Below the pieces are notes generated by a model that was not told the origin of the DNA, made no database searches, and was given only the letters and a program-made list of their open reading frames with translations. DNA of 47,250 nucleotides from an uncultured Barnesiella sp. (GTDB lineage: Bacteria > Bacteroidota > Bacteroidia > Bacteroidales > Barnesiellaceae): positions 1 through 47,250 of the forward strand of contig CALUFO010000021.1 of the NCBI GenBank assembly GCA_944320015.1, in the 5' to 3' direction. Of the stretch, positions 19,166-41,063 are shown in pieces (the stretch's first letter is position 1; each line of letters begins with the position of its first letter). Position numbers and translations under genes: made by a program.

Positions 19166-19660
19166 TCAGAATTTGTATCCCAACCCGAGAGAGATGTGGG
19201 CTTGGTTGAAATCGTTGATGAAAATGTATTTCCCTTCGAGGTGCAGGTTGAACCGGTGCGATAGGTTCACTTCGAGCCCGGCGCCGACGTTGATTCCGAA
19301 TTTGTTTCGGGTGTTGGACAACTCCTTGTCGCTTTGCAACGCATTCCCCCGCCAGCTTTGGAACGCGATTCCCGCCAATGGATAGAACGAGAACCTCCCC
19401 GCGAAAGGCACAAGGTAATGAATGTTCCCGTCGATTTCCCACTCGTTGAGGTCGTGGTGCGTGAACGCATAGTTGACCGAGGGCGCCACCCGCCAGTTTT
19501 TAGCGAAGGGGAGGTGCATGAAAATACCTATCTGGACATTCTCGGTATCGAACAAATATCCGGTAGACACCCCCAAACATTTGGTGTTGTGGGATTGAGC
19601 TTGGGCGACAATCCCCGGGAGGGATGCGGCGAGTATCAGTAGAGCGATTATTTTTTTCAT
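19166..19660 (-). CDS. Small outer-membrane beta-barrel protein
   Basis: 164 residues from ATG 19660; an upstream in-frame start at 19849 would precede the signal peptide and is rejected. Signal peptide 1-22 (SLPGIVAQAQ). Eight or so amphipathic strands alternate with tight turns, and the protein ends in a C-terminal Phe (SLGLGYKF), the normal barrel signal. It fits the OmpX/OmpW-like outer-membrane barrel superfamily. A -7 box lies just upstream (19679-19686). It is followed at 4 bases by a glycosyltransferase gene. Confidence 0.8.
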   Translation of the reverse strand: MKKIIALLILAASLPGIVAQAQSHNTKCLGVSTGYLFDTENVQIGIFMHLPFAKNWRVAPSVNYAFTHHDLNEWEIDGNIHYLVPFAGRFSFYPLAGIAFQSWRGNALQSDKELSNTRNKFGINVGAGLEVNLSHRFNLHLEGKYIFINDFNQAHISLGLGYKF

Positions 19661-19678
19661 ATCACAAAGTTTGGACAA

Positions 19679-19686
19679 CAAATATA
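19679..19686 (-). promoter_or_regulatory. Candidate -7 box for the barrel/glycosyltransferase unit
   Basis: TATATTTG on the minus strand (19686 to 19679), 19 bases before ATG 19660. No clear TTG partner was found, so this rests on the -7 box alone. Confidence 0.45.
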
Positions 19687-19950
19687 CGCTATCTTTCTGT
19701 GAATATGCACTCTCGAAAAAATTTTTTAGGATAGTATGACATTTAAATGAAAAAAATAATCTTTTTGGAGAATGAATCTCGATGCGGAGGCATGGACAGG
19801 TGGTCGCCGGGTTGTGGGTATAATCGAAGAAAAGGCGGTGTGTCATCATTGCAAACCGCTGCGTTATGATCGGGATTCGGGCTAAGTCATTTACGGGAGT
19901 AAACTTCTGTCGCCCTTACTCTCAATGCCTTGCATTTTATCAATTCTAAC
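19687..19950. other. Intergenic region without visible gene
   Basis: Apart from the promoter box at its left edge and the large hairpin at its right edge, I see no conserved ORF, repeat or RNA signature. Confidence 0.4.
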
Positions 19951-20005
19951 ACAGCGAAGGGGCTGCGCCAAAATTTATCATTTCGGCACACAGCCCCCTC
20001 GCTGT
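19951..20005 (-). terminator. Large hairpin at the 3' end of the PUL (second AAGGGGCTGCGCC element)
   Basis: Left arm 19951-19969 and right arm 19985-20005 pair over about 18 positions, with a 15-base A/T-rich loop. It lies 20 bases past the stop of the FAD/GH20 gene. The inner arm repeats the sequence of the hairpin at 10584-10596. It is a likely end point of the PUL transcript. Confidence 0.7.
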
Positions 20006-20024
20006 TGTATATAGGTTTGTGTCG

Positions 20025-23000
20025 CTACTTTTTGATAATACGGAAGACTTCGGCTTTTTGAGTGGTATTTATTTCTAAGAAATAGATACCGGGTTGTAAA
20101 TCGGACAAATCGATAGCCGAAGAGGTATAACGCCCTATTTTACTCCCCGACAGGGAATATAAATCGCATGAAAGAATAGGCCGTCCTTCTATGTGCAACA
20201 CATCGGTACAAGGTATCGGATAGACCGTTAACGATGGGTTTGAGCCGAAGTGGTTTATATCGGTATATACGTTCATAAACCACAGGGAGGGGTGATATTT
20301 CCCTTCTTCGATGAACCAAGGGGATTGCTCGTCGTTCCCGAATTGAAATCCGATATCGGTATATGTCGACTGTTGGGAAAGTTGGCGGGTCGTCATGGAG
20401 AGGCCGTCGGAAGAGGAGTGTCCCGAATCGATAATTTTATCGGCTACATTGGTGAAAAACACTTGATCGTTATCGGCTAAATTGTTGGATAAAGAGGCCA
20501 AGGGAGAACGGTTCTCGGCGATAATGCGGTTGAACCAATTGACCGTACCCGAACTGCCGAGTCTCTCGATTTCCAAGTTGGCGGCCACGATGCCCGAGAT
20601 AGAGACTCCGGCCGATTTGGAGATTGCGACTGCCGCCGCCGCTCTGTTGCTGGACAGGAGATGACCGTTTACGATGCAGTGATTTATCTCTGTTGGCATG
20701 GCGGTTACTCCAACCAAGCCGGCGGCACCTCCGAGAGAAGGTTCGAGATAAACATCTACATAGCAATTCGATATTTGGACTTTTGTGCTGGTAGCATCGC
20801 TCGATGTGAGTCCTACGAGCCCTCCGTAATTGGTGCTGGCATTCCCGTTGGCTACTACTTTACCGGTTACGGCACAGTTTGTGATAGTCCCTCCTATCAG
20901 ATACCCGGCAAGTCCACCGGCATAATCGCTGCTGGCTGTCACAGAAATATCTTTCAGGTAGAGATTTTTAATCGTACAGTCTTTGCATGTCCCGAAGAAT
21001 CCTACCCAGCCACCTCCGTTGATCTCGGCATTCGTAATGGAATAGCCATTACCGTCTAAGGAGCCGCTAAAATGCTGTCCGGTATTGATATTCCCAATGG
21101 GAGAGAAGGGGTAATATTTCAGGTCGATGTCATTCGCTAAGCGATAAGAGGCCGATAGCCCGTTGTGCATTTCGTCCAATTGGTAAGCGTTGGTTATTTC
21201 GTAGGGATTTTCGGGAGTCCCATCGCCTTTTTCAAACCGCCCCGGTAAAAAGAACGTATTGTTGCCGAACCATATTCCGCAAGTCTCCCCGACTTGTATT
21301 TCGCCTTCGAAACCCGCGGCTTTGATAACCGTTCCTTCGGGTAAAGTCAGAGGCCCGGTGTATATGGGCGATTCGGCCGTAGGTTCAGTTCCGTCGAGGG
21401 TGTAGTGAATATCGGCTTTCGGATAACCTAATGTGATTTCCAATCGTTTGGGATAAGTGTTGTCCCTGTCAAATATGAATACGGGCCGATAAAAAGCCTC
21501 ACCCGGGGTAAATCCTTTTGCTTCCAATCGGGGATAATCTTCGGCGACACGCTCCCTGAAAGAGTCGAAATCTTTGCGAGCCTTAGGCGTCCAGCCCAAC
21601 TCGGCGATTGCCAATCCTCGGGGGAATACTTGGTACATTACCTTTTCTTCGGTGTCGAGGGTTTCGGACCAGCAGTTGCCTTGTACGCCATAAATGTATC
21701 GGGCATCGTCGTTCGATAATCCTGCTGGGACAGGGTCGTATCCATAAACCTTTTGCAGGGGAGTGAATCCACCACAGCTCAAATGGTCGATTTTCTCTAT
21801 ATCTTCGCCCAATTGGTAATAATCCAAATAGACATACTCCCATGGAGTCATAATGACTTTATGTCCTTGTGAAGCCGCTTCGGCAGCTCCGCCGGTCCAA
21901 GACATGACAATCGCATTCTCGGGCAGCCCTGAGCCTCCTTTCAGGATTTCGTTCCACCCGATTATTTGTTTTCCTTTCGTATTCATGAATATGGCGATAC
22001 GGTTCATGAAATAGTTTTGGAGAGCCGTCTCATCGGCCAATCCCAAGTTTTTGATTAACTCTTGGCAGTGCTGGCATTTGCTCCACGACGAGGTGAGCGG
22101 GGAGCATTCGTCGCCGCCGATATGATAGTATGGGCTGGGGAAGAGTTCCAATAATTCGGTCAATACGTTTTCCAAGAAAGTGAATGTCGACTCTTTGGGG
22201 CACATCAGGTCGGTAAATATTCCGAAATTTTCTTGTACTTCGTGAGGCTGTTCCGGGAAGCAAGACAACTCGGGATATGCGGCCAGTGCCGCCGTAGCGT
22301 GTCCCGGCATTTCGATTTCGGGGACTACGGTGATGAATCGTTCGGCGGCGTAGGCTACGACTTCTTTTATCTGCTCTTGGGTGTAGTAACCGCTATGTGC
22401 TATGCCGTCGTATTTACCGGTAAAGCCAATGGCCGATTGTTCCCGGGTGGAGCCTATTTCTACCAGTCGGGGGTATTGTTTTATTTCGATGCGCCATCCT
22501 TGATCATCGGTCAGGTGCCAATGGAAGTGATTGATTTTGTGCAGCGCCAGAATGTCGATATATCGTTTGATGAAATCTACCGATTTGAAGAACCGGGCGA
22601 CATCCAAGTGCATGCCCCGGTATGCAAAACGGGGCTCGTCTTGAATGTCGACACATCGTATTTTTAGTTCCAAGCCTTCGATGAGTGTCGAGCCGCATAC
22701 GGCCGGAGGCAGCAGCTGGTAGAGGGTTTGTATGGCATAGAATGCTCCTTGTGCCGTAGAACTCTCGATCATAATCGACGACGGCGTCACTTGTAGATTA
22801 TATCCTTCGGGTGCGACCGATGGGTCGAGGCTGAATTGTATCGAGTTTTCGCTTGAAGTCGCATTCCCGGTCGTAACAGGCATGTATATTCCCGATGTGG
22901 TTTCAATTTGATTCGTAAAGTCCTCGACGACTTTATAGAGGTCGGCGTTTCCACCGGGAACAAATACGGTAACTTGTGAAGATAACTCGAAAGTTCCTTC

Positions 23001-25658
23001 GGAGGGGACAAGCGATAGTGGCATTGGGATTATGGCATATCCCGCGGTCTCGGCAGGTTTGGGCTCGGTCGGGTGTTCCCATTCGGGATTCATGTACCAA
23101 AGTACGGGGTATGATTGACCATCTTCCGATAGGAACCAAGGCTGGCCTATGTCGCTCCCGAATTTATATCCGATATTTACATAGGTGTCTTTCATTTTGA
23201 GTTCTTCGAGGGTCTGGGTCAATCCGTCTTTGGTGTCGAGACCCGATTGAATCGATTTGTTGTCTATGCCGTTGAATACGACAGTTGTAGAAGCGAGATT
23301 GTTGTTGTAGGTGCCCGAGGATCCATCGCCTATGATTCGGTTCATAGCGGTTCCATTCCCGGTTGAGCCCGAGTCGGTTATTACCAAATCGGTCGCTACG
23401 ATTCCCGAGAATGAACTTCCGGCATTGTTGGTCAGCGCCGTTGCCGCTCCTGCCCGGTTGGGTGAAAAAATTTCGCCTTTGACCAAGCAGCATTCTATAA
23501 GAGTGGGCGCCGTAGCTGCTCCTACAATGCCGCCTATTGTTTTATTACCCGAAACAGATGCTTCGACATAACAATTTGATATGGTCACTGCCGCACTTCC
23601 ACCCGAGCGACCCATAATCCCGCCGATATTGTTGTGAGTCCCTCCTATGACGGTTCCCTGTACAGCGCAGTTCTGTATGGTCGCCGATTCGCCGTAACCT
23701 GCCAAAAGGGCTACATCGTCGCCGGCGCCGGTGGTGGTTTGCGTGATAGTCATCTGTTTCAGCCATAGATTTTTGACTGTCCCTCCGACGATGGCTCCGA
23801 AGATTCCGGCGAATTGCCCTTGCACGGTCATATTGGCGTTGGTTATGGCGTAGCCGTTCCCGTCGAAGACACCTTTAAAAGGTTTCAGGATAGAGCCGAT
23901 GGGAGACAGGCTTATTCCCGAGAGGTCAATGTCGGACGTTAGTTTGAAATGGGCGTCCAGATGGTTGGAGACTTGGGAAAGTTGGTAGACATTGCCAATC
24001 AGATATGGGTCGGTTTCTGTTCCGGATCCAACGATTGTCTCGGGTCCGGAGCCGTCTAAATAGGGGTCGTTGTTTAATTTTTGTTGTAATGCCTGCACAT
24101 CGATATTCTGTACCGGGCTGTTGTCGTCGATAGCCATAGCGGCAGCGATACCGGCGGCTTGTCCGAGTTGCATAAAAACAGGTTCCATGCGTATGGAGCC
24201 GTATGCTATGTGCGATGAGGATACGCAGACCGGAACCAATAGATTGCTACATTCTTCCCTTTTGGGAGTGATGCTTCGATAGGAAATAGGGAACGGCGCA
24301 GGTAATGCAATTTCCACATCGCCTTCATTTTTGACCATTCCGTTATGTATGATCCGGCGACAGTTGTGGGAGTCCATCGCATACGAAGCCATACCGATGC
24401 CGTCGGTGACCACTTCGGTTCCCTCGCAATTTTTTTGGGTCATGATATATTCTCCTACCATTCTTCGGGCTTCGCGGATATAGATTTGATATGGGAAATA
24501 GTTGTTGTCGATAAATTCGTCTTTTGCCCAACCAAATTCGTTTATTTTATCTCTTAAAGCCTGAGGCACAGCTTCGTCGGTTGTGAGGAAATAGAACAAC
24601 CCCCGGATATATTCTTCTTGGTCTTTGCATATTTGCGCCCTTTCTTCGTAGGAGCCTTCGGGGTACCGGTGGTTCATGCCAATCATGTTGGTAGAAAAGG
24701 CTCCCCGGTTGTTTATGTCGTATTTGTTCCCCGGAATGGCATCGGCGGCGAAATAGCTATTGATGTCGAGTTGTTTCTCGGGGCTCATCTTTTGAATCGC
24801 TCTTGCCAATAATTCGTAGACTTCCCGATTGTATGATTCGGGACGGGAGAAGGGGACTTTGTTGTTTTCGTCTTTGGTCATACACAGCCTGTAATTGTAG
24901 GCTTGAATCGAATTGTCACCTTCGCCGGTTGTCCCCAGCGCTTCGTCCGATACACCCCAACACAGGCCGCTTGTAGGATCGCCTTCGATCTTGTAGGGGT
25001 CGACCCCGTCGGGGAATTGATGATAATAGGCCAGTTGAATACCGTTGCGGCTTTCTCCATAAGTCGAGTTGCTTTCTCGCCCTATGGCATAGGAGACTCC
25101 GGCCTTGGCCATCAAGTCGCCTTCATAGGAACAGTCGATAAATATTTTGGCCGATATTTGCAGTTGCGGAGATTGAGGTTCCTGCGAATCCTCTAATACA
25201 ATGGAGTTGATTTCCCCTTGATCGATAGTGGCAGCGATTATGCGACGTTGGTACTTTACATCGATTTCGCCTTCGGCTATGAATTCATCTATCACGGAAG
25301 AGGCTACACTGGGAGGAAAATACCATTCTTCAAACTTGTTATAGTGGTTGCCTATCTTTCGGTAGAATAGTCGGGCCAGTCCCGAGATAGACTCCTTTTG
25401 TCCAACGTCGGTGAAGCCTAATCCCGAGGTCGTCATGCCCCCGAGATGTTTCCCCGGTTCGATGAGTATTACGGTCTTGCCCATTTTTTTTGCCGAATAG
25501 GCTGCCATTACTCCTGATGCGGTTCCTCCGTAGACACAGACATCGACGTCGTGTGTGGTTATGGGTTCGGTTGCATTGCCTTGGAATCCCGACCCCATAA
25601 GAATCCCGACTATACTTAAAAGTAAAGAATGGGAAAAGAGATTTCTGGTGATTTTCAT
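20025..25658 (-). CDS. FAD-dependent oxidoreductase / GLUG / GH20 beta-N-acetylhexosaminidase / GLUG / T9SS fusion
   Basis: 1877 residues, exported. Signal peptide (about 1-29). An FAD_oxidored-type flavin domain (about 37-540) carries the Rossmann motif YGGTASG (43-49) and HLGGMTTSGLG. A GLUG region (about 550-860) comes next. Then a GH20 N-terminal alpha/beta domain (about 880-1010) and catalytic barrel (about 1010-1390), with the Asp-Glu pair Asp1183-Glu1184 in HIGGDE and the upstream HFHWHLTDDQGWR. A chitobiase-type C-domain (about 1400-1470), a second GLUG region (about 1490-1790) and a T9SS sorting tail (about 1800-1877; GIYFLEI, RIIKK) end it. The GH20 part should release terminal beta-GlcNAc/GalNAc. 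What the flavin domain oxidises is unknown. It is last in the PUL, 28 bases after lipoprotein B. Confidence 0.9.
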   Translation of the reverse strand: MKITRNLFSHSLLLSIVGILMGSGFQGNATEPITTHDVDVCVYGGTASGVMAAYSAKKMGKTVILIEPGKHLGGMTTSGLGFTDVGQKESISGLARLFYRKIGNHYNKFEEWYFPPSVASSVIDEFIAEGEIDVKYQRRIIAATIDQGEINSIVLEDSQEPQSPQLQISAKIFIDCSYEGDLMAKAGVSYAIGRESNSTYGESRNGIQLAYYHQFPDGVDPYKIEGDPTSGLCWGVSDEALGTTGEGDNSIQAYNYRLCMTKDENNKVPFSRPESYNREVYELLARAIQKMSPEKQLDINSYFAADAIPGNKYDINNRGAFSTNMIGMNHRYPEGSYEERAQICKDQEEYIRGLFYFLTTDEAVPQALRDKINEFGWAKDEFIDNNYFPYQIYIREARRMVGEYIMTQKNCEGTEVVTDGIGMASYAMDSHNCRRIIHNGMVKNEGDVEIALPAPFPISYRSITPKREECSNLLVPVCVSSSHIAYGSIRMEPVFMQLGQAAGIAAAMAIDDNSPVQNIDVQALQQKLNNDPYLDGSGPETIVGSGTETDPYLIGNVYQLSQVSNHLDAHFKLTSDIDLSGISLSPIGSILKPFKGVFDGNGYAITNANMTVQGQFAGIFGAIVGGTVKNLWLKQMTITQTTTGAGDDVALLAGYGESATIQNCAVQGTVIGGTHNNIGGIMGRSGGSAAVTISNCYVEASVSGNKTIGGIVGAATAPTLIECCLVKGEIFSPNRAGAATALTNNAGSSFSGIVATDLVITDSGSTGNGTAMNRIIGDGSSGTYNNNLASTTVVFNGIDNKSIQSGLDTKDGLTQTLEELKMKDTYVNIGYKFGSDIGQPWFLSEDGQSYPVLWYMNPEWEHPTEPKPAETAGYAIIPMPLSLVPSEGTFELSSQVTVFVPGGNADLYKVVEDFTNQIETTSGIYMPVTTGNATSSENSIQFSLDPSVAPEGYNLQVTPSSIMIESSTAQGAFYAIQTLYQLLPPAVCGSTLIEGLELKIRCVDIQDEPRFAYRGMHLDVARFFKSVDFIKRYIDILALHKINHFHWHLTDDQGWRIEIKQYPRLVEIGSTREQSAIGFTGKYDGIAHSGYYTQEQIKEVVAYAAERFITVVPEIEMPGHATAALAAYPELSCFPEQPHEVQENFGIFTDLMCPKESTFTFLENVLTELLELFPSPYYHIGGDECSPLTSSWSKCQHCQELIKNLGLADETALQNYFMNRIAIFMNTKGKQIIGWNEILKGGSGLPENAIVMSWTGGAAEAASQGHKVIMTPWEYVYLDYYQLGEDIEKIDHLSCGGFTPLQKVYGYDPVPAGLSNDDARYIYGVQGNCWSETLDTEEKVMYQVFPRGLAIAELGWTPKARKDFDSFRERVAEDYPRLEAKGFTPGEAFYRPVFIFDRDNTYPKRLEITLGYPKADIHYTLDGTEPTAESPIYTGPLTLPEGTVIKAAGFEGEIQVGETCGIWFGNNTFFLPGRFEKGDGTPENPYEITNAYQLDEMHNGLSASYRLANDIDLKYYPFSPIGNINTGQHFSGSLDGNGYSITNAEINGGGWVGFFGTCKDCTIKNLYLKDISVTASSDYAGGLAGYLIGGTITNCAVTGKVVANGNASTNYGGLVGLTSSDATSTKVQISNCYVDVYLEPSLGGAAGLVGVTAMPTEINHCIVNGHLLSSNRAAAAVAISKSAGVSISGIVAANLEIERLGSSGTVNWFNRIIAENRSPLASLSNNLADNDQVFFTNVADKIIDSGHSSSDGLSMTTRQLSQQSTYTDIGFQFGNDEQSPWFIEEGKYHPSLWFMNVYTDINHFGSNPSLTVYPIPCTDVLHIEGRPILSCDLYSLSGSKIGRYTSSAIDLSDLQPGIYFLEINTTQKAEVFRIIKK

Positions 25659-25686
25659 GTGAGTTAGTTTTTTGTGAATAATGTGA

Positions 25687-27411
25687 CTAAGGTGTTTTGT
25701 GGAACGAGATACCGGGCAACCGGGACGATACCCGAGCGATCTCGTCTATTGTGAGTGGCTGTGATTGCTCGACCGTTGTTTTGTACGACTCGATACCTAT
25801 GCGGTTTACAATATCGTTGGCAACGATTTCACAAGGGGCGTTTAGACCATCGGAAAGATCCCACACTTCCTCGATGTTATCGGCTCTCATGGTTATATGA
25901 GAGTAGTGATGTTCTTTTAGAATCTCGGCTAAATCGTATTTGCCGATGCGGGCGTTTAAGTGGACGTTCAGTTCTTTTACCCGGCTTTCGGGGAATACGC
26001 CTGTAATCGCGGTTGCGACATATTTGTCCAGCCTGTCTACGGTTAATGAAGCCGGGACGAATTGCCAATACAGGAGGGGAATATGACCGTTGCTCAATTC
26101 ATACATGGGTTCCGAAATGAGGTATTCGTTGAATGTTACGCATGTGGGAGATAAATGGTTTTTCTTGATATGTTCCAGCGCGACGTCGGTAGCCAAGTCA
26201 TACAGGTCTATCATATTTTCGGCCGCTGTCAAGGCATAGCAGTCTATATGCAGCCGGGCGAGTCGTTCCCCGAAAGCTTCGATTTGCTGCTCTAAAATAC
26301 CGCTTTCCCAATCGGCGATCATACATACTGTGTCGAGATTTTGTTTCTCGTAGTCGACAATGTTTGAGGTGATGGCTTGCATGTCTTTTTCGGAACCGTG
26401 ATTGGTATATTGCAGATAAATGCTTCCCGGGGCATATTCCTCTTTCTCCGATTTGTTTTTAAGGCGACGGGCATAGGATTCGCCATGTACGTTTTCGCCG
26501 ACTCCGGCTATGATTACGTTTTTCACCCGATGGTTCGCAATGAATCGTATGTATTCTTCGGGTATATCCAGCAGTTTGATCCAAGCTACTCCCACTCCCG
26601 ACATGGAGGCATCGTAACCCAATGTGGCATAGGTTTTATATCCTTTTTGCCGGGAATAGTCCATGATTGATTGTATCTCTTTGCAGGCATTGACCGAGAC
26701 AAGAAAATGGAGCGGTAGTACCGGAGCCTTCAAGGCGGCCGACAAGTAGGGTATACTGGGAGCTCCTGTCGAGATGATTACGGTTTCTATTTCTTTCTCT
26801 TCGCCTAACTCCCGATTGTACAAGTCGATGGTATATCGGAGCGATTTTTCAAGGAAATCGGGGGCTCCCCACACGGGCGAAGGCCCTCCTCCCGGGCCGA
26901 TGTCCCATGTTTGGCTTATGTTTCCGGTCAAGTTTGATAGGGATTTTTCTATGGCGTATTCGGCGCTCATACCACCGTTTAGGCGGTAGACCGTCAAATT
27001 GTCGAACGCTGTTTTATCGATGCGGTAGGTCGTTAGCGCCGAGTCTGCCGCAACACGAATGCAGGTTACATATTGGGGATTGCCTTGGAGGCTTTTGACA
27101 AAGATACCTATCGAGTATGTAGTGGTAGAATCGATTTTGGCGATCTCCCACGACAATTTATCGGTCGACTGGGTTAAGATGGGCTCGTTTCTCTGGGATA
27201 TGTTTTTCAATATGATCGTATGAGGGGTCGGTGTCTGAGGGGAAATCTCGATGGTAAGTTTGTCTCCCGGATTATAGACACATCGGGTCATTGCAAAATC
27301 CCAGCCTTCGGCTGTTCGGGTCAAACGTATCGGGCTTTCTTCGTGGGAGCACGAAGCCATTATAGCCGTGATGACGAAGGGAACTATATTTATAAGTAGT
27401 CTTTTGCTCAT
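25687..27411 (-). CDS. PUL lipoprotein B of unknown function, paralogue of the gene at 28931
   Basis: 574 residues. Lipobox ASC (Cys21), an Ig-like N-terminal part (about 25-130), then a large mixed alpha/beta region. Segments shared with the 604-residue protein at 28931-30745 include LNGGMSAE, YATLGYDAS, GVAWIKLLDIPEEY, GESYAR, IADWESGI and a C-terminal DGLNAPCEIVANDIVN. I do not recognise the family. The Trp-Glu-rich core, LYWQF strand and enzymatic neighbours suggest a barrel-like hydrolase or glycan-binding protein, but no catalytic signature is certain. It probably faces the cell surface. It lies directly before the FAD/GH20 gene. Confidence 0.7.
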   Translation of the reverse strand: MSKRLLINIVPFVITAIMASCSHEESPIRLTRTAEGWDFAMTRCVYNPGDKLTIEISPQTPTPHTIILKNISQRNEPILTQSTDKLSWEIAKIDSTTTYSIGIFVKSLQGNPQYVTCIRVAADSALTTYRIDKTAFDNLTVYRLNGGMSAEYAIEKSLSNLTGNISQTWDIGPGGGPSPVWGAPDFLEKSLRYTIDLYNRELGEEKEIETVIISTGAPSIPYLSAALKAPVLPLHFLVSVNACKEIQSIMDYSRQKGYKTYATLGYDASMSGVGVAWIKLLDIPEEYIRFIANHRVKNVIIAGVGENVHGESYARRLKNKSEKEEYAPGSIYLQYTNHGSEKDMQAITSNIVDYEKQNLDTVCMIADWESGILEQQIEAFGERLARLHIDCYALTAAENMIDLYDLATDVALEHIKKNHLSPTCVTFNEYLISEPMYELSNGHIPLLYWQFVPASLTVDRLDKYVATAITGVFPESRVKELNVHLNARIGKYDLAEILKEHHYSHITMRADNIEEVWDLSDGLNAPCEIVANDIVNRIGIESYKTTVEQSQPLTIDEIARVSSRLPGISFHKTP

Positions 27412-27481
27412 TTGTATCGGATTGATTGTTATTTGTTTGTGATGAATACAAGCCTTGAAATAGGTGTAATACTCCCTATTC

Positions 27482-27506
27482 CCGAGGAAACTATTAGTTT
27501 CCTCGG
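27482..27506 (-). other. Intergenic hairpin inside the PUL
   Basis: Perfect 10-bp stem CCGAGGAAAC (27482-27491) / GTTTCCTCGG (27497-27506) with a TATTA loop, in the 151-base gap between the GLUG protein and lipoprotein B. No T run follows on the minus strand, so it is more likely an mRNA-stability or processing element than a full terminator. Confidence 0.6.
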
Positions 27507-27562
27507 GGTAGAAGGGGGGGAGGGTTATTATATAAAAGGCTCTATACTTACTTCGGCGAGAT

Positions 27563-28828
27563 TTAGCGTTTTACGAATTTGTGAATGTAGGAATCTTTTC
27601 CCGAGAAGATTTTGATGAAATAGATTCCGGCCGGGAGATTAGAGACCTCGATAACCCGGTTCTTATGGCAGCTTACTAAATTGCCGGAGGCTGAATAAAT
27701 TTCGGCCGATTCGATATTGCCCGAGATTTGCAATTGGTCGCTCACGGGGTTGGGGAAGATTTTTATCGAAGTGAGTTTCTCGGTTTCACGCATGGAGGTC
27801 GGAGTCCCGTCGTAGTACCATAGGGTAGGAAATTCTTGGCCATCTTTGATTGTCCAAGGGGCGTTTTCGTTGTCGCCGAAGGCATATCCCAACGTCTCGT
27901 ATGTGGTTTGTTGCTTCAATTCGCTTTCGGTCTTGTCGATACCTCGTTTCTCGTCGGTAACCTGCTCGGGAACGACGTCGATAAACTCGAATTGTTCGGC
28001 CCAAACATAGTTGTTGGCGATTGTCCCGGCGGTGCCATTACGGGTTCCTATGATTCGGGAAAAATGTTCGGGGCCGGCCCATGAAGCCTGCCGGGTTACT
28101 TTCATGTCGAGGATAACGATACCGGTTACCGTGTTTTGAGGGGTGGCAACTTCGTCGCAACCGAAATATCCCATGGCGCCGGCACCTCTTCCGCCTACGC
28201 TTACAGAGCCTCGCGCAAGACAATTCTGAACGATTCCGTTGTCATTGCATTGGCCTACGATTGCGCCGGCCGTTAAACTTGCAGGGGCGGTTGTCACCGC
28301 TACGTTGGCGATGCAATTGATAACGGAGCCGCCTCCGTTATAGATACAGCCCACGATGCCTCCGGCCGTGTTGTCGAACGATGTGACTGTACCCTCGACG
28401 ATACAATTCTTGACAATGCCATTGTCGATTTGCCCCACCAAGCCTCCGACCACAGCGTTGCCGGTGAGCGAGAGATCCTTCAAATGGAGGTTTTTGATAG
28501 TGCCTTGGCTCATGTATCCGAAGAATCCACTCCAATAGCTTGCGCTTGAAGAGATAGTGGCTCCTGATATTTTGTGCCCGTTGCCATCGAATACACCCGA
28601 GAACGGCTGGTCGAATGACCCTATTTGATTCCAAGTTTCGCCGGTGAGGTCTATGTCGTTCATGAGTATAAAATGAGCCGATAGGTTGTTGGTCACTTCG
28701 GCCAATTGCTCTTTGTTTTGTATTTGAAACGGAGATTCCGATGTCCCGTCGCCTGCTGCGAATTGAGCAGATAGGGAGAATGAGCATAGGCATGCCCAAA
28801 ACGTGAGTTGTAGATTTAATGTTTTCAT
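27563..28828 (-). CDS. Secreted GLUG-repeat protein with T9SS sorting tail
   Basis: 421 residues. Signal peptide (about 1-21). A run of GLUG-type repeats follows (about 25-300: DIDLTGETWNQIGSF, FSGVFDGNGHKI, SGFFGYMSQGTIKNL, GGLVGQIDNGIVKNC, GGIVGCIYNGGG). A conserved end segment (YETLGYAFGDNENAPWTI) is also found after both GLUG regions of the FAD/GH20 protein. The C-terminus is a type A T9SS tail (PNPVSDQLQI, GIYFIKIF, ending KFVKR). There is no enzyme domain; a beta-solenoid adhesin or scaffold at the surface is inferred. It sits between the two paralogous lipoproteins. Confidence 0.8.
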   Translation of the reverse strand: MKTLNLQLTFWACLCSFSLSAQFAAGDGTSESPFQIQNKEQLAEVTNNLSAHFILMNDIDLTGETWNQIGSFDQPFSGVFDGNGHKISGATISSSASYWSGFFGYMSQGTIKNLHLKDLSLTGNAVVGGLVGQIDNGIVKNCIVEGTVTSFDNTAGGIVGCIYNGGGSVINCIANVAVTTAPASLTAGAIVGQCNDNGIVQNCLARGSVSVGGRGAGAMGYFGCDEVATPQNTVTGIVILDMKVTRQASWAGPEHFSRIIGTRNGTAGTIANNYVWAEQFEFIDVVPEQVTDEKRGIDKTESELKQQTTYETLGYAFGDNENAPWTIKDGQEFPTLWYYDGTPTSMRETEKLTSIKIFPNPVSDQLQISGNIESAEIYSASGNLVSCHKNRVIEVSNLPAGIYFIKIFSGKDSYIHKFVKR

Positions 28829-28930
28829 AAGTTGGAATTTTAGATTGTTAGTTAAAAATGATCGAAAATATGTGAGTTAAATGATTTTTGAGTTTGCGAA
28901 ATAGACGGAGATTCCATAATCGGTGAAGCG

Positions 28931-30745
28931 TCATAATGAGCTAAATTCCACACCCGAAATTTCTCCGGTCAGAGTGGCCAGTTCACCGATAGATAGCGGG
29001 ATTAGAGCCTGCTGTTTGGCCTTATAGTTGTCGACTCCTATGTTGTTCACTATATCTGTCGCGGCCATTTCGCAGGGAGCCGACATTCCGTCGGACGGAT
29101 TCCAAATTATTTGGTCCCCTCGTTGGTAGATATTGGCGGAGGGGATACCAAAATTGACAAGTCCCTCGTAGAAATTTTCTTTGTTGTATCCAGAGTTCAA
29201 GAAAAATTTCAGGCGGTTGAATGCGATGTCGGGGTAGTGTGCCGCTAATTCGTTTTTCAGCATTCCGGTAGCCCGTCCATTTGTATTGCTGGGTGAAGTG
29301 AATTGCCAATACAACAGGGGAACGAATCCTTTGATTGTCTCGTAGGCCGGCATACACACCAGATATTCGTTATAGCAGACCCCATTGACATAGGGAGCCG
29401 ACAGCAAAGATTTGTTTTTCTCGATGTAGTGAACCGAGAGGTAAGAGCCTAAATCGTACAGCGCTATCATGTCGGAAGAACAGGTGAGGAGGTAGGGCTG
29501 AGCCGAAGTCCCGGCTTTCAACGATTTTGTAAAGTTCTCGATTTGAGTGTCTATGATACCGCTTTCCCAGTCGGCGATAAGGCGGTTTTCGTCTAAATTC
29601 AAGGAGGTGAAATCGTATATTCTTGAAGTCAAAGCCGCGATGTCGTCGGCCGATCCATATTGGGTATATTGTAAATAAAGAGAGCGGGCTCCATATTCAG
29701 CGGTGCGGTGCTCGGTGAGGACTTTACGGGCATAGGATTCTCCGATTACTTCTTCGCCTACACCGAATAAAATGACATTCTTCACTTGATGATCGTTGAG
29801 GAATTGCTTGTATTCTTCGGGCAAATCCAGTAGCTTCACCCAAGCTACTCCAATATCGGCGATGGAGCCGTCATACCCTAATGTCGCATAGCTGGGGTGG
29901 TCGTTTTCGTTGGCATAGTCCAAGACCGACTGTACTTCTCTCGCTGTATTGGCTGCACCTAAAAAATGTATGGGGAGATATACCGCTTTCGTCGCATTGG
30001 TCAGATAATTCAACGCCGGCACGCCTGTCCCGATAACCACCGTTTCTATGGGGGTGTTTGCCCCCAGAGCCTCGTTATAGAGATCGACGGTCTTTTGTAA
30101 CGAGCGTTGGAGAAAGTCGGGAGTCATTAATACCGGTTCGGGGCCAGACCCGTTATCTTTGTTGTACCACGAGTGCGATATGCTTCCTGTCAAGGAGGCA
30201 AGCGATTTTTCTACTCCTAATTCGGCACTCATGCCACCCATTAGTTTCATCACGTCGAGCCCTTGATAATTCTCCTTGTCTATTTTATAGAGCGTGAGGG
30301 TGTTGTCGTCTACTATGCGGAAATAGGATCCGTTGATTGTGGTTTGTATGCCATCTTCAAAAATGCAAGAGAGTGTAATGCCGCATGAGGTTCCGGCCGC
30401 AATGTCTGCCGGGACGGTGAAAAAATCATTTGCCTCGACAACCTCCGATGAGTTTTTGTCTATGGTAATTGACCGGTTCAAAGAAGATTGCGATAATACC
30501 GGGGTAGAAGGTATTGATAAATCGATTACTTTGATGGTGATGTCGCTTATCGTCGAGGGTAAATCGGTATCGTTGTTCAGTGTGAACGAACAGGAAACTG
30601 ATTCTCCTTGCCGATATTCGCTTTGGTCGGTATTGAAATGGCTGGCTTTGATCATAGTTGTGGCGAATGGCGAGTCGACTATTTGTTCGTCGTCGCACCC
30701 CAGCAAGGCCAATGCCATGAAGGCGATGAATATATATTTTTTCAT
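28931..30745 (-). CDS. PUL lipoprotein A of unknown function, paralogue of the gene at 25687
   Basis: 604 residues. Lipobox LLGC (Cys17), then an Ig-like domain (about 35-145) and a C-terminal body matching lipoprotein B block by block: LMGGMSAELGVEKSL, YATLGYDGSIADIGVAW, HQVKNVILFGVGEEVIGE, IADWESGIIDTQIENF, LLYWQFTSPS and SDGMSAPCEMAATDIV. The two are diverged but collinear, which points to an old duplication rather than a recent one. Function unknown. It lies 19 bases downstream of the GH89 gene, so it is co-transcribed. Confidence 0.7.
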   Translation of the reverse strand: MKKYIFIAFMALALLGCDDEQIVDSPFATTMIKASHFNTDQSEYRQGESVSCSFTLNNDTDLPSTISDITIKVIDLSIPSTPVLSQSSLNRSITIDKNSSEVVEANDFFTVPADIAAGTSCGITLSCIFEDGIQTTINGSYFRIVDDNTLTLYKIDKENYQGLDVMKLMGGMSAELGVEKSLASLTGSISHSWYNKDNGSGPEPVLMTPDFLQRSLQKTVDLYNEALGANTPIETVVIGTGVPALNYLTNATKAVYLPIHFLGAANTAREVQSVLDYANENDHPSYATLGYDGSIADIGVAWVKLLDLPEEYKQFLNDHQVKNVILFGVGEEVIGESYARKVLTEHRTAEYGARSLYLQYTQYGSADDIAALTSRIYDFTSLNLDENRLIADWESGIIDTQIENFTKSLKAGTSAQPYLLTCSSDMIALYDLGSYLSVHYIEKNKSLLSAPYVNGVCYNEYLVCMPAYETIKGFVPLLYWQFTSPSNTNGRATGMLKNELAAHYPDIAFNRLKFFLNSGYNKENFYEGLVNFGIPSANIYQRGDQIIWNPSDGMSAPCEMAATDIVNNIGVDNYKAKQQALIPLSIGELATLTGEISGVEFSSL

Positions 30746-30764: not shown

Positions 30765-32963
30765 TTACTTGATGATTTGAGGACGGTATTTCTGATACAG
30801 TTGTTTCGCCGTTTCTATGGGGCTTATTTGTGGGCAGTCGGGATAATCGCCGGTTTGTTTCGTGAACGAAAGTTCAAATTCTGTGACTTTCCGATAAAAG
30901 GCATCTTCGTCAAAATCTTTCCCTTCGTTTACCGCTGTCGTCACATCGTCGATGAACATTTTCCACCGAGTCAGATAATAATCCCGGACGAGTCCAGCCC
31001 ATGTGCGGTTGGCATAGTCATTTAAACTTTGGTCTTTGTCGCCCCAAGTAGTCAGCAAGGTACGGGCATTCAGCTCGTAATAGTCTTGTTCTGCTTTATT
31101 GTCCCCGATTTGGCGGGCTTTTTCGAGCCATCGCCCGAATGAGAATGCCGAATGGGTGGAGAGCACCGTGTCCAAATCGGTCAAGAGCTCTACCATTTGC
31201 TGTCCCGTAAGTTCCAATTCTTTCTTATCTCTGCGGTCGTAAGCGTGGGTAAATCGGTCCCGGAGCACCGAGAAATAATTTCCCAATACTTGTCGTCCCA
31301 GATTTACGACGTCGAAATGATATAGGTCGTTAGGTACAGGGTCGGCTTGCAACATCTCGCCCCATGCCTGTAACAGGGTTTTATTGTCGTAGGTTATAAA
31401 GGGCTGTGTTGTCCAGTTTCCGTGACCTTTGAAAGAGGGACGGGCGTTGGTCAAAGTGCCTTGCCCCAGTTGTGCCGGCTGGGTGTATATCGAGTCGTAT
31501 AATAGTTTCCATGCTTTGCGGGCGTGGCTGTCGACTTTGCCTGCCCGGCGGTCGGCCAAGTTCTCGATCCAGCGGCTGTCGGGGACAGCCGTGTCCCATG
31601 CTTTGTCAAAGACATATTCATACATAAAAGGATTTACGTCGAATCCTTCGAGGGTAGAGCCTATGCCGGCGAAGTTTTCGCCGCCCTCGTTGAATACATT
31701 TTCTATGCGTTTGCCGGTTTCTTGCATATTCCCTACCAGCATGGTATTCCCTCCGAAATTACCTAAATAGCACCATAGGAAAGGCTGCCCGAAGTATCGG
31801 TCGGTTATTCGCCATACCTCTTTGTTCTCGGCATAATAGTCGAGAAGAATCATTTTTCCTTTCGGCACAGCATTGACGAACGCGTCGACTCTGGGTTTGG
31901 TCCAGCTTGCCATGTCGATGTAAAACATCCAAGTCATTTGTATCCATACGGCTTGCGGGTCGACTCGGTTCATCGATTCGTAAATGGTTCGCGACACCGA
32001 GGCTAAATATTCGGGTTCCCAACTGGGAGGCACCAACTCGTTGAAGGGGTCGGCTCCGTAAATGTGATCCGAGCCGAACAGCCGGGTTTGCTCGGTGAGA
32101 AACTCTTTTTGAATGACAGTGAAGAGCGAATCCATGGGGTCGAGGAAATGGCTGCGGTATTTGTCTTGAAATTCGCCCCATTTACTCAACTGGGATATTT
32201 TGGCTTGGGGGAATACCCGGCTCAGTTCTTTGGGCACATGGCCGGCAAATGCCGGTAACACAGGTTTCATGTTTAATTCCCGCTCTCGTTGGAGAATTTG
32301 TTTTTGCAAGGCTTCTTGATTTTTTAGCCAAGAATGAGGCAGGGGGCCTTGCCAGTAATCGAGATTCGACATGCGGTGCCAAGGCAGGTGCGCCGGCCCG
32401 GTGAAATAGTTTCGTATTTCTTCGTCGGTGAGCCCCATTTTCTTCCAGACATTGTACCATACGGTCTCTTGTCCTGTGATGGCCAACGGAAGGTTGATTC
32501 CGTTTAGAGCCATCCAGTCGATAAATCGTTCCCAGTCGTGCCAGTCCCACCACGGCATGGTGTAGCCGAATGTACAGTAATTGAGGAAGAACCTGTTTTT
32601 GCAGCGCGCTTTCCCGTGAACTGTCGACGTGACGGGCGGCAGATCGGCCGGCATACAGATAGAGTCGGCGGCGTTCCAAGAAACGGTCGTGAGGCAGAAA
32701 TCTTTGAGGTATCGGTTTAGCCCTACGGCCATGGAGTTGTCGTTGTTGCCTCGGATAATAATTTTGTCGCCCTGCGATTCTATTTCGTAGAAATCGAGAC
32801 TGTCGCTCGATACTTTCTCCTCGAAGACGAAGCGGTCGGCAAATTGAGGAATGAGCCGTTGGGTCAATGCTTCGACAGGCCGTTTTGAAGGACTTGCGCA
32901 CGAGAAGAGCGCCGGCAAGAGTATGAGTGTGAATAGGGTCGATATTATGGTTGTCTTTTTCAT
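30765..32963 (-). CDS. Alpha-N-acetylglucosaminidase (GH89) lipoprotein
   Basis: 732 residues. Lipobox FSC (Cys22) marks it as membrane-anchored, probably surface-exposed or periplasmic. GH89 (human NAGLU family) enzymes remove terminal alpha-linked GlcNAc from heparan sulfate or from alpha1,4-GlcNAc-capped mucin O-glycans. Visible family hallmarks are MPWWDWHDWERFIDWMALNG, AITGQETVWY and PAHLPWHRMSN. The likely catalytic pair is Glu309 (GADPFNEL) and Glu439 (GSTLEGF). Length fits the bacterial family. It is the PUL's clearest substrate indicator together with GH20. Confidence 0.95.
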   Translation of the reverse strand: MKKTTIISTLFTLILLPALFSCASPSKRPVEALTQRLIPQFADRFVFEEKVSSDSLDFYEIESQGDKIIIRGNNDNSMAVGLNRYLKDFCLTTVSWNAADSICMPADLPPVTSTVHGKARCKNRFFLNYCTFGYTMPWWDWHDWERFIDWMALNGINLPLAITGQETVWYNVWKKMGLTDEEIRNYFTGPAHLPWHRMSNLDYWQGPLPHSWLKNQEALQKQILQRERELNMKPVLPAFAGHVPKELSRVFPQAKISQLSKWGEFQDKYRSHFLDPMDSLFTVIQKEFLTEQTRLFGSDHIYGADPFNELVPPSWEPEYLASVSRTIYESMNRVDPQAVWIQMTWMFYIDMASWTKPRVDAFVNAVPKGKMILLDYYAENKEVWRITDRYFGQPFLWCYLGNFGGNTMLVGNMQETGKRIENVFNEGGENFAGIGSTLEGFDVNPFMYEYVFDKAWDTAVPDSRWIENLADRRAGKVDSHARKAWKLLYDSIYTQPAQLGQGTLTNARPSFKGHGNWTTQPFITYDNKTLLQAWGEMLQADPVPNDLYHFDVVNLGRQVLGNYFSVLRDRFTHAYDRRDKKELELTGQQMVELLTDLDTVLSTHSAFSFGRWLEKARQIGDNKAEQDYYELNARTLLTTWGDKDQSLNDYANRTWAGLVRDYYLTRWKMFIDDVTTAVNEGKDFDEDAFYRKVTEFELSFTKQTGDYPDCPQISPIETAKQLYQKYRPQIIK

Positions 32964-39857: not shown

Positions 39858-41063
39858 TCATGGGGCCTCCTTTTTTATTCGTTCGACAATGAATCGGTTG
39901 TTTTCTTCCCGTATGGTTACCGGTGCGGTGGTTTGTATGGTGTTCAATACGAGTCGTATGTCTTGTGTCAGGTTCAACTTTCCGTTGCATTTCAGCATCA
40001 TGTCTTCTTGCTTGTCATATAGGATGGAGGCGTTGTAGTATCGAGAGAGACGTTTGAAGATGCTGTTCAGATATTCGCTGTCGACCTTCATCAGCCCATT
40101 GCGCCAGCAGATGTAATCGAGCGCATTTACGTTTTCCACGCCATAATTCCCGTTGTCGTTCAGTTTGTACCGTTGATTGGGGGATAAGGTTATTTCGTCG
40201 TGACGGTCATTTTTAATGGCCACTTTGCCCGATACGAGGGCTACGCTATACTCTGAGTCTTCGTTATAAGCCGAGATATTGAACGAAGTCCCCAGTACGG
40301 CGACGTCCATTCGGGTTGTCTTTACGATAAATTCCCGGTCTTTTTCGTGGGCGACTTCGAGGTATGCCTCACCGTTGATGAAGATTTCGCGTTTTTCCTT
40401 GCCGAATTCCGAGGGGTATATGATTGTGGTTCCCGAGTTGACCCATACATGAGTGCCGTCGCAGAGCGTCAGATTCATGCGTTTCCCGTATGGCACAATT
40501 AATTTGTTCAGGGTTTGAGTGGATTTCAAATCTTGTTCTTTGACCACCTCTTCTTCTTGGGTGATGATGACGTTGCCGTTTTGATATAAGACTTCTTCTT
40601 GCTCTGAGAGGCTCAATACTTCTTGATGATTTAAGTATAGTTGTATTTGTGGATTGGTGAGGAGTTCGCTCGATTCGGGGTCTAACATGGACAAGTAGTC
40701 TGGTTCGGTCTGTTCTTGCCGATGAAAGAATAGACCGACCATTAGGAGTATGGTGATCGATGCGGCTATGGCGCTCCAGCGGAAGGTCCGTTTTATCGTG
40801 ACGCGGGCTTTTTGTTTCCGGGTGATGGCCCGGTCGAGAGCTTCCCATTCGCTGTCTATGGTTTGAGCGTCGGGGAGAGGTTGTTTTATCTGTATTTTTT
40901 TGAGGATAGAACCGGCTTCCTCGATGTATGGGACGAGGTGAGGCTTTTGTGCCATCAAGTTTTTGAAAAACAGAGCGGCTTCCGGATCGTTCCTATATAT
41001 CCAATCCATAAAGAAAATATCGGTCAGGAAGTCCTGCGTGTGGTATTGGTCGTAGTCTTTCAT
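39858..41063 (-). CDS. FecR-family anti-sigma factor
   Basis: 401 residues. Cytoplasmic N-terminal part (about 1-90), one transmembrane helix (about 94-113, WSAIAASITILLMVGLFF), a periplasmic FecR domain (VPYGKRMNLTLCDGTHVWVN, VALVSGKVAIKN) and a C-terminal DUF4974 (LNSIFKRLSRYYNASILYD). It senses the STN domain of SusC and releases the sigma factor encoded 116 bases upstream. It is part of the PUL's own regulatory pair. Confidence 0.95.
   Translation of the reverse strand: MKDYDQYHTQDFLTDIFFMDWIYRNDPEAALFFKNLMAQKPHLVPYIEEAGSILKKIQIKQPLPDAQTIDSEWEALDRAITRKQKARVTIKRTFRWSAIAASITILLMVGLFFHRQEQTEPDYLSMLDPESSELLTNPQIQLYLNHQEVLSLSEQEEVLYQNGNVIITQEEEVVKEQDLKSTQTLNKLIVPYGKRMNLTLCDGTHVWVNSGTTIIYPSEFGKEKREIFINGEAYLEVAHEKDREFIVKTTRMDVAVLGTSFNISAYNEDSEYSVALVSGKVAIKNDRHDEITLSPNQRYKLNDNGNYGVENVNALDYICWRNGLMKVDSEYLNSIFKRLSRYYNASILYDKQEDMMLKCNGKLNLTQDIRLVLNTIQTTAPVTIREENNRFIVERIKKEAP

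What the first reader, a model, noticed from the sequence alone, without database searches (positions are those of the whole stretch)
20025..25658. FAD oxidoreductase fused to a GH20 hexosaminidase, with two GLUG regions and a T9SS tail
A single 1877-residue exported protein combines an intact flavin-binding oxidoreductase (YGGTASG at 43-49), an intact GH20 active site (Asp1183-Glu1184), two GLUG blocks and a sorting tail. Known GH20 enzymes need no redox step. A coupled oxidation of the sugar or of a linked group before or after cleavage would be new for this family.
Basis: partly seen in the sequence, partly recalled or inferred. Interest (0 to 1): 0.85.

Follow-up and report, generated by a model that had tools for sequence, protein, structure and literature searches.

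The report
Flavoenzyme–hexosaminidase fusion in a sugar locus
A bacterium carries one very large, probably exported protein that joins a flavin enzyme of unknown activity to an ordinary sugar-cutting enzyme inside a glycan-eating gene cluster; the exact fusion was not met elsewhere, but it points to a widespread, little-studied family of flavin enzymes that sits with glycan uptake genes.

Summary
Window 20025-25658 is one open frame on the MINUS strand (1877 aa): leader, FAD_oxidored (PF12831, 39-528), GLUG-type block, complete GH20 (874-1453, Asp1183-Glu1184), second GLUG-type block, T9SS tail. It closes a polysaccharide utilization locus (ECF sigma, FecR, SusC, SusD, DUF3823, GH89). No repeat of 20 bp or more marks a join. 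The exact fusion was seen in none of 98, 394 and 374 other genomes (overlapping samples, capped lists) nor in 80 named loci of the nearest FAD relatives. Six of the seven proteins sister to the FAD half carry Golvesin_C instead. A PF12831 gene stands directly behind SusD in 39 of 91 loci, and other PF12831 proteins are fused to GH28, GH130 and a melibiase-like domain. Best reading: two sequential enzymes on one surface protein, not a new GH20 chemistry. Key residues are kept, but each half is the least conserved of its sample at near-invariant positions. Substrate and electron acceptor are unknown.

The parts
20025..25658 (-). FAD_oxidored-GLUG-GH20-GLUG-T9SS fusion protein, 1877 aa
   Evidence: single open frame; domains
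25572..25658 (-). N-terminal leader, residues 1-29, looks like a signal peptide without lipobox (read by eye, no predictor run)
   Evidence: sequence
24075..25544 (-). FAD_oxidored domain PF12831, residues 39-528
   Evidence: 368.7 bits, E 6.7e-110; AlphaFold2 model pLDDT 93.7
23061..24023 (-). first GLUG-type block, residues 546-866
   Evidence: M26_N-like hit at 562-668; 43% identical to the second block
22638..23039 (-). GH20 domain 2 (PF02838), residues 874-1007
   Evidence: 72.5 bits
21585..22628 (-). GH20 catalytic domain (PF00728), residues 1011-1358
   Evidence: 386.4 bits; best solved relative by sequence 6q63
22107..22112 (-). GH20 catalytic pair Asp1183-Glu1184
   Evidence: positions; D and E in 39 of 39 aligned GH20 relatives
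21300..21458 (-). chitobiase/hexosaminidase C-terminal domain (PF13290), residues 1401-1453
   Evidence: 52.4 bits
20244..21248 (-). second GLUG-type block, residues 1471-1805
   Evidence: Glug 24.6 bits; homologous to the first block and to 27563-28828
20046..20225 (-). T9SS sorting tail, residues 1812-1871
   Evidence: PF18962 28.9 bits, TIGR04183 29.1 bits
25687..27411 (-). lipoprotein-like protein, 574 aa, paralogue of 28931-30745; gap of 28 bp to the fusion gene
   Evidence: no Pfam family over the cut-off and no NCBIfam family; 46% to its paralogue
27563..28828 (-). GLUG + T9SS-tail protein, 421 aa, homologous to the fusion's GLUG blocks and tail
28931..30745 (-). lipoprotein-like protein, 604 aa, no known family
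30765..32963 (-). GH89 (NAGLU-type alpha-N-acetylglucosaminidase), 732 aa
   Evidence: PF05089 475.2 bits, PF12972 272.6 bits
32993..34465 (-). DUF3823 protein, 490 aa
34481..36343 (-). SusD, 620 aa
   Evidence: PF07980 117.1 bits
36340..39750 (-). SusC-type TonB-dependent receptor, 1136 aa
   Evidence: Plug, STN and CarbopepD_reg_2 domains
39858..41063 (-). FecR anti-sigma factor, 401 aa
41179..41769 (-). ECF sigma factor, 196 aa

Best explanation
It is a real, lineage-specific two-enzyme protein of a SusCD glycan-utilization locus. Shown: an FAD_oxidored domain whose nearest relatives are mostly SusD-linked FAD_oxidored+Golvesin_C proteins stands here without Golvesin_C and with a GLUG-GH20-GLUG-T9SS block behind it. 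Inferred: the protein is exported by the T9SS to the cell surface; the GLUG blocks are spacers; the GH20 half removes terminal beta-linked HexNAc from a glycan whose alpha-GlcNAc ends are removed by the neighbouring GH89; and the flavin half dehydrogenates a hydroxyl of a sugar that the hydrolases expose or release. The two reactions are sequential and held close together; the GH20 keeps its normal substrate-assisted hydrolysis. The oxidised sugar, the product and the electron acceptor are not known.
For: One frame with full-length PF12831 and GH20. Place in a complete SusCD locus with GH89, 28 bp behind the gene before it. FAD half sister (support 100/99) to seven Bacteroidales proteins; 6 of these 7 end in Golvesin_C. 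A PF12831 gene lies within 400 bp behind SusD on the same strand in 39 of 91 loci (32 the matched gene, 7 a second PF12831 paralogue); SusC-type receptor in 50, SusD in 45, FecR in 41, ECF sigma in 37 of 91 (one representative of each checked by Pfam). Other PF12831-glycosidase fusions: GH28, GH130, melibiase-like (28.8 vs 27 bits), all in one other genome. Catalytic DE kept; 84 of 88 columns that are at least 95% conserved kept in the FAD half. T9SS tails and SprA in the genome.
Against: No activity, flavin content or substrate is known for the FAD family: the profile search of solved structures gave only weak partial matches and the 50 listed Foldseek matches have query TM 0.24-0.33. PF12831 also matches in all 14 control genomes, so the family as a whole is not specific to glycan loci. 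52 of 91 loci show no SusD directly before a PF12831 gene (some are cut short). GH20 genes lie within the flanks in only 4 of 80 loci of the FAD family, so GH20 is not its usual partner. One of the seven sister proteins (L107, 516 aa) and a close one outside the tree (L112, 570 aa) have no Golvesin_C, so the ancestral arrangement is likely, not certain. Each half is the least conserved of its sample at near-invariant columns (FAD 142/152, lowest of 53 close rows; GH20 102/112, lowest of 40), including Asn324, where the other 63 rows have Asp.
Confidence: 0.45

Rival explanations
1. Coupled chemistry: the flavin half oxidises the HexNAc or the sugar linked to it, and this oxidation is needed for, or replaces, GH20 cleavage, as the transient C3 oxidation of NAD-dependent glycosidases does within one active site.
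For: Redox-assisted glycosidases exist (GH4, GH109, GH188: passages of PMC10755693); some loci of the FAD family also carry 3-keto-disaccharide hydrolase PF06439 (6 of 91 loci; Pfam on one member) or GMC oxidoreductase (4 of 91; Pfam on one member).
Against: GH20 has its own complete hydrolytic pair. Its -1 pocket binds the sugar hydroxyls tightly (recalled), so an oxidised terminal HexNAc is an unlikely GH20 substrate. The FAD domain is not of the Gfo/Idh/MocA or GMC families (no such hit at E up to 0.1).
Confidence: 0.12
2. Plain co-localisation: both halves are active but on different molecules; the fusion only fixes their ratio and their place on the cell surface.
For: FAD relatives usually stand without a neighbouring GH20 (GH20 in the flanks of 4 of 80 loci); PF12831 is also fused to a metallophosphoesterase.
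Against: Fusion to several glycosidase families and the SusD linkage point to glycan-related substrates.
Confidence: 0.22
3. One half has lost catalysis and serves as a binding or structural module.
For: Each half is the least conserved of its sample at near-invariant columns; FAD half has Leu260Met, Asp324Asn, His347Gln, Tyr456Phe against its family; GH20 half has ten departures, among them His1023Phe, Asp1236Asn and Tyr1333Thr.
Against: YGGTASG and the catalytic DE are kept; 84 of 88 and 102 of 112 conserved columns remain; Asp429, His431, His483, Arg490 and Glu492, the same in all 64 rows, are kept. Among all 64 FAD rows, distant paralogues included, eight rank lower than the window.
Confidence: 0.14
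4. Assembly artefact: two genes that each carried GLUG and a T9SS tail were joined through the GLUG repeat.
For: Two GLUG blocks and a third GLUG+tail gene nearby; the exact fusion was met nowhere else; no reads available; the genome is a 33-contig assembly.
Against: No direct repeat of 20 bp or more in 19800-29000; the blocks are only 34-43% identical as proteins and blastn finds no DNA match of the gene elsewhere in the window; GC 0.48-0.51 and GC3 0.53-0.56 from FAD half to second GLUG block (tail 0.41 and 0.42); no frame break.
Confidence: 0.05

Closest known systems
FAD_oxidored + Golvesin_C proteins of Bacteroidota SusCD loci (PF12831 + PF25275; no name or activity found)
   Same: FAD half 52-62% identical over its whole length; leader before the FAD domain (by eye); SusC/SusD neighbours
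   Different: They end in Golvesin_C (8 scanned stand-alone cases, plus L058 and L064 counted among them; L107, L112 and L132 lack it), and no FAD frame of the 80 named loci matches GH20, GLUG or the T9SS tail. By its name Golvesin_C is a carbohydrate-binding type: PMC9166713 (passages) lists xanthan lyase and golvesin under CBM6-CBM35-CBM36_like_2; the link to PF25275 is my inference
GH20 exo-beta-N-acetylhexosaminidases of Bacteroidota, nearest solved sequence 6q63
   Same: GH20b + GH20 + C-terminal chitobiase-type stretch, catalytic DE
   Different: 0 of 43 GH20 open frames from other genomes in the fetched loci also match the FAD half or a GLUG block
PF12831-glycosidase fusions in genome G761 (GH28, GH130, melibiase-like)
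   Same: FAD_oxidored N-terminal to a glycosidase in one frame
   Different: Other glycosidase families; the FAD domain of the GH28 fusion is 40% identical and branches far away, on a long branch
Redox-dependent glycosidases GH4, GH109, GH188
   Same: Idea of an oxidation linked to glycoside cleavage
   Different: NAD-dependent, one active site (PMC10755693 passages); here FAD and a separate hydrolase domain
Flavocytochrome c3 / fumarate reductase and urocanate reductase flavoproteins
   Same: Among the top Foldseek matches of the FAD model by E-value (best 1.5e-11)
   Different: Query TM 0.24-0.33 in the 50 listed rows: only the FAD-binding core is likely shared; the reaction cannot be transferred

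Membership tests
FAD_oxidored (PF12831) | score over the Pfam cut-off over the whole profile | tested here: met
   368.7 vs 27 bits, profile 1-416 of 416
FAD_oxidored (PF12831) | bound flavin | not testable with these tools
   only the motif YGGTASG at 43-49 was seen
FAD_oxidored + Golvesin_C subfamily | Golvesin_C module behind the FAD domain | tested here: not met
   no PF25275 hit in the fusion at E up to 0.1; present in 6 of 7 members of its sister group, absent in L107
GH20 | GH20b + GH20 domains and catalytic Asp-Glu | tested here: met
   72.5 and 386.4 bits; D1183-E1184 aligned with D and E of 39 of 39 relatives
GH20 | activity on beta-linked GlcNAc/GalNAc | not testable with these tools
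   no assay
T9SS type A cargo | C-terminal sorting domain | tested here: met
   PF18962 28.9 vs 27, TIGR04183 29.1 vs 23 bits
T9SS type A cargo | secretion machinery in the genome | tested here: met
   SprA_N 657.6 bits at C1; other machinery genes not looked for
SusCD polysaccharide utilization locus | SusC/SusD pair, regulator and carbohydrate-active enzymes in one run of genes | tested here: met
Redox-dependent glycosidases (GH4, GH109, GH188) | NAD-binding GH4 or Gfo/Idh/MocA domain | tested here: not met
   no such Pfam hit at E up to 0.1
GMC sugar/glycoside oxidases | GMC_oxred_N and GMC_oxred_C | tested here: not met
   no such Pfam hit at E up to 0.1
Fumarate/urocanate reductase flavoproteins | same overall fold | tested here: not met
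   query TM 0.24-0.33 in the 50 listed matches

The most novel reading that the evidence does not exclude
SusD-linked FAD_oxidored(+Golvesin_C) proteins are an unrecognised class of outer-membrane or surface flavin glycan oxidoreductases that start an oxidative route of glycan breakdown in Bacteroidota; this protein is a case in which such an enzyme has been hard-wired to a glycosidase, so that the sugar oxidised is one that GH20 exposes or releases.
Probability: 0.25. Interest if true: 0.8.

Novelty: new variant of a known kind. Interest (0 to 1): 0.5.

Why it matters
PF12831 matches turned up in every genome sampled (393 of 393 and 395 of 395; the weaker ones may only share the FAD-binding stretch), yet the accession is named in only 1 paper of the open library searched, and the subfamily here has no full-length relative among solved structures by sequence. 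Its regular place behind SusD, fusions to glycosidases, and a locus with four PF12831 genes suggest that Bacteroidota glycan loci hold a flavin step that glycan-degradation models leave out. The fusion names a testable substrate range (beta-HexNAc, next to a GH89) for that step. If the step does not exist, the protein is an ordinary multidomain PUL enzyme.

Tried and rejected
Exact fusion elsewhere: a genome-contig scan with the whole protein gave no relative; whole-genome searches with the protein in 98 other relatives, 394 other phylum genomes and 374 other class genomes (overlapping samples) list only matches to the FAD half, the GH20 half or a GLUG block (mostly 2-4 candidates per genome were scored and the lists were cut, but a full fusion should rank first). 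Plasmids: no place covers 80% of the query, in 348 records with a match of 72,556 searched. PF12831 in 392 other order genomes and 394 other phylum genomes: no listed open frame is as long as the window's 1906 codons (lists cut). Of the listed frames over 900 codons I read those of G761 (three), G621, G277 and G564. G277 is a 708-aa open frame with PF12831 at 178-681. For G564 the listed 980 codons are not borne out: the frames there are separate, 472 and 486 aa.

Repeat-mediated misassembly: looked for, not supported. Orthologous locus in the genus: 7 of 8 other genus genomes have a GH89 relative, at most 53% identical, and the 604-aa lipoprotein was found in none of 294 other genomes of the order, so no orthologous locus was found to compare. 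Structure of that lipoprotein: AlphaFold2 on two rows gave pLDDT 33.6, unusable. Fold search of the FAD model in PDB and in viral models: low TM throughout. Literature: ten searches (mostly listings) showed no paper on this fusion or on SusD-linked PF12831 enzymes as a family. Two hits were opened at the passage: PMC6987092 names an unrelated FAD-dependent oxidoreductase near a GH3 gene; PMC11345257 mentions a FAD-dependent oxidoreductase as a neighbour of a SusC/D pair in Maribacter, without more. Most subscription papers are not held and no bioRxiv preprints are.

Full report
WHAT IS THERE. The finding lies on the minus strand of a 47,250-base contig (G000:C21) of a 2.62-Mb, 33-contig genome, 95.3% complete. 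The frame 25658 to 20025 encodes 1877 aa without interruption. Pfam gives, in order, FAD_oxidored PF12831 at 39-528 (368.7 bits), an M26_N/GLUG-like stretch at 562-668, GH20b at 874-1007, GH20 at 1011-1358 (386.4 bits), CHB_HEX_C_1 at 1401-1453, a GLUG motif at 1579-1602 and the T9SS tail at 1812-1871. The GLUG label is secure only for the second block, but the two blocks share 43% identity over 326 columns, and a 421-aa GLUG+tail protein two genes upstream shares 34-36% with both.

IS IT A REAL GENE. GC content is 0.48-0.51 and GC3 0.53-0.56 from the FAD half to the second GLUG block; the short tail is lower (0.41, 0.42). No direct repeat of 20 bp or more was found in 19800-29000, and blastn finds no second copy of any part of the gene in the window, so a repeat-driven false join is unlikely. 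No reads were available to prove it. The gene starts 28 bp behind the preceding gene on the same strand.

SURROUNDINGS. The genes scanned from 41769 down to 20025 run on the minus strand: ECF sigma, FecR, SusC-type receptor, SusD, DUF3823, GH89 (NAGLU), a 604-aa lipoprotein-like protein, a GLUG+T9SS protein, a 574-aa paralogue of the 604-aa protein, and the fusion. This is a complete PUL. An outer-membrane barrel gene (19166-19849) and a glycosyltransferase gene (18013-19161) follow on the same strand; whether they belong is open. GH89 removes alpha-GlcNAc (family knowledge; a B. thetaiotaomicron GH89 that acts on heparosan oligosaccharides is the subject of PMC8225759, title and start of abstract only), so with GH20 the target is a HexNAc-containing glycan. 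Genus relatives carry only GH89s at most 53% identical, and the 604-aa protein was found in none of 294 other genomes of the order: the locus is not a shared genus locus.

OTHER GENOMES. The whole protein was searched in 99, 395 and 375 genomes, own genome included each time and samples overlapping: apart from the window, every listed match covers only the FAD half, the GH20 half or a GLUG block; the lists were cut. FAD-only matches reach 62% identity in open frames of about 670 codons, GH20-only matches up to 53%. In those 80 loci no FAD frame matches GH20, and a GH20 frame lies in the flanks of 4 (L114, L115, L127, L162). In one search, the main FAD cluster holds 127 frames from 90 loci, 718 aa at most.

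WHERE THE FAD HALF COMES FROM. Six of the seven (L060, L061, L081, L089, L090, L092) carry Golvesin_C; the seventh, L107, is a 516-aa frame without it. Outside the tree, L091 has it and L112 (59% identical) does not. So the ancestor was most likely FAD+Golvesin_C, and the fusion replaced that module by GLUG-GH20-GLUG-tail; loss first and fusion later is also possible. Golvesin_C is by its name a carbohydrate-binding type (PMC9166713, passages; the link is my inference).

WHAT THE FAD FAMILY TRAVELS WITH. Among 91 loci (80 named, 11 from whole genomes) a SusC-type cluster occurs in 50, SusD in 45, FecR in 41, ECF sigma in 37, an MFS transporter in 12, 3-keto-disaccharide hydrolase in 6, GMC oxidoreductase in 4 (one representative of each identified by Pfam). 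A PF12831 gene starts within 400 bp behind SusD on the same strand in 39 of 91 loci, 32 times the matched gene and 7 times a second PF12831 paralogue; the other 52 loci, some cut short by contig ends, do not show this. One locus (L112) holds four PF12831 genes with SusD and no glycosidase among the ten genes scanned. There is no matched control for these counts, but the SusD adjacency looks too regular to be chance. Other fusions: FAD_oxidored+Golvesin_C+GH28 and FAD_oxidored+GH130 in G761, metallophosphoesterase+FAD_oxidored in G621, FAD_oxidored+melibiase-like in G761 (28.8 vs 27 bits). Three of these four are thus from one genome.

STATE OF THE TWO HALVES. Of 88 columns at least 95% conserved in 63 relatives, the FAD half keeps 84; departures are L260M, D324N, H347Q and Y456F; at 324 all other 63 rows have Asp. 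The GH20 half keeps 102 of 112 such columns against 39 relatives, with DE intact and departures such as H1023F, D1236N, Y1333T. In leave-one-out ranking each half is the least conserved of its sample (142/152, lowest of 53 close FAD rows; 102/112, lowest of 40 GH20 rows). For the FAD figure I left out 11 distant rows; with them in, eight of 64 rows rank lower than the window. That speaks for changed specificity or relaxed constraint and against calling both halves simply intact.

FOLD. AlphaFold2 on 64 rows gives a confident FAD model (pLDDT 93.7, pTM 0.93). Its best PDB matches by E-value are flavocytochrome c3/fumarate reductase, with complex II and urocanate reductase close behind (E about 1e-11 to 1e-10), but query TM is 0.24-0.33 in the 50 listed rows, so only the FAD-binding core is likely shared. 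A profile search of PDB sequences gives only weak partial matches, most to the first 50-80 positions (FAD-binding stretch), a few elsewhere such as PylS and a dihydrolipoamide dehydrogenase. The reaction cannot be read from structure.

MECHANISM. I commit to sequential action: GH20 (and GH89) trim HexNAc, and the flavin half dehydrogenates a sugar exposed or released by them. Shown: domain integrity, locus, family linkage. Inferred: export, substrate, order of steps. The coupled variant is less likely because GH20 has its own complete catalytic pair and, from recalled structures, grips the hydroxyls of the terminal sugar, so prior oxidation of that sugar should hinder it. How flavin is loaded and where electrons go outside the cell is open and is the weakest point of any redox reading.

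NOVELTY. The combination was not met in any search here; the parts are known. It is a new domain arrangement of known kinds, and a pointer to an uncharacterised family: PF12831 is named in 1 paper of the library, on the Brucella ovis flavoproteome (listing and start of abstract). I rate it 0.5: a singleton with divergent halves, but with a regular and unexplained family behind it.

Noticed in passing
window 28931-30745 and 25687-27411 (minus strand): Two paralogous lipoprotein-like proteins (46% identical) in the locus match no Pfam family over a cut-off and no NCBIfam family, and the longer one was found in none of 294 other genomes of the order; AlphaFold2 on the pair failed (pLDDT 33.6).
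   Followed up: partly
L074:8652-11990, L075:3424-6354, L076:3699-7586 (genome G761): One Bacteroidales genome holds three PF12831-glycosidase fusions: with GH28 (and Golvesin_C), GH130 and a melibiase-like domain.
   Followed up: partly
L077:3465-6701 (genome G621): Calcineurin-like phosphoesterase with its MetallophosN/C domains fused N-terminal to FAD_oxidored.
   Followed up: no
L112:1565-17351: A SusD locus with four PF12831 genes and no glycosidase among the ten genes scanned; an AAA-ATPase/PDDEXK_9 gene stands between two of them.
   Followed up: no
L061, L080, L089, L090, L112: A protein of about 1000 aa with PF12831 in three pieces (scanned in L090 and L112; L090 has a weak TAT-signal match, 19.5 bits, under the cut-off) sits in five loci of the FAD family.
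   Followed up: no
L123 (PBYL01000095.1): Labelled Thalassovita (Pseudomonadota) but its FAD gene and SusC/SusD neighbours look like Bacteroidota; probably a mis-binned contig.
   Followed up: no
window 45281-45361: ARAGORN calls a tRNA-Lys on the plus strand inside the 1285-aa amidase/T9SS gene 42010-45867 of the minus strand; Rfam at gathering thresholds gives no match in the window, so it is probably false.
   Followed up: no
L179:730-4119 (genome G863): GH20 protein of 1129 aa with about 400 residues before GH20 that match no Pfam family.
   Followed up: no
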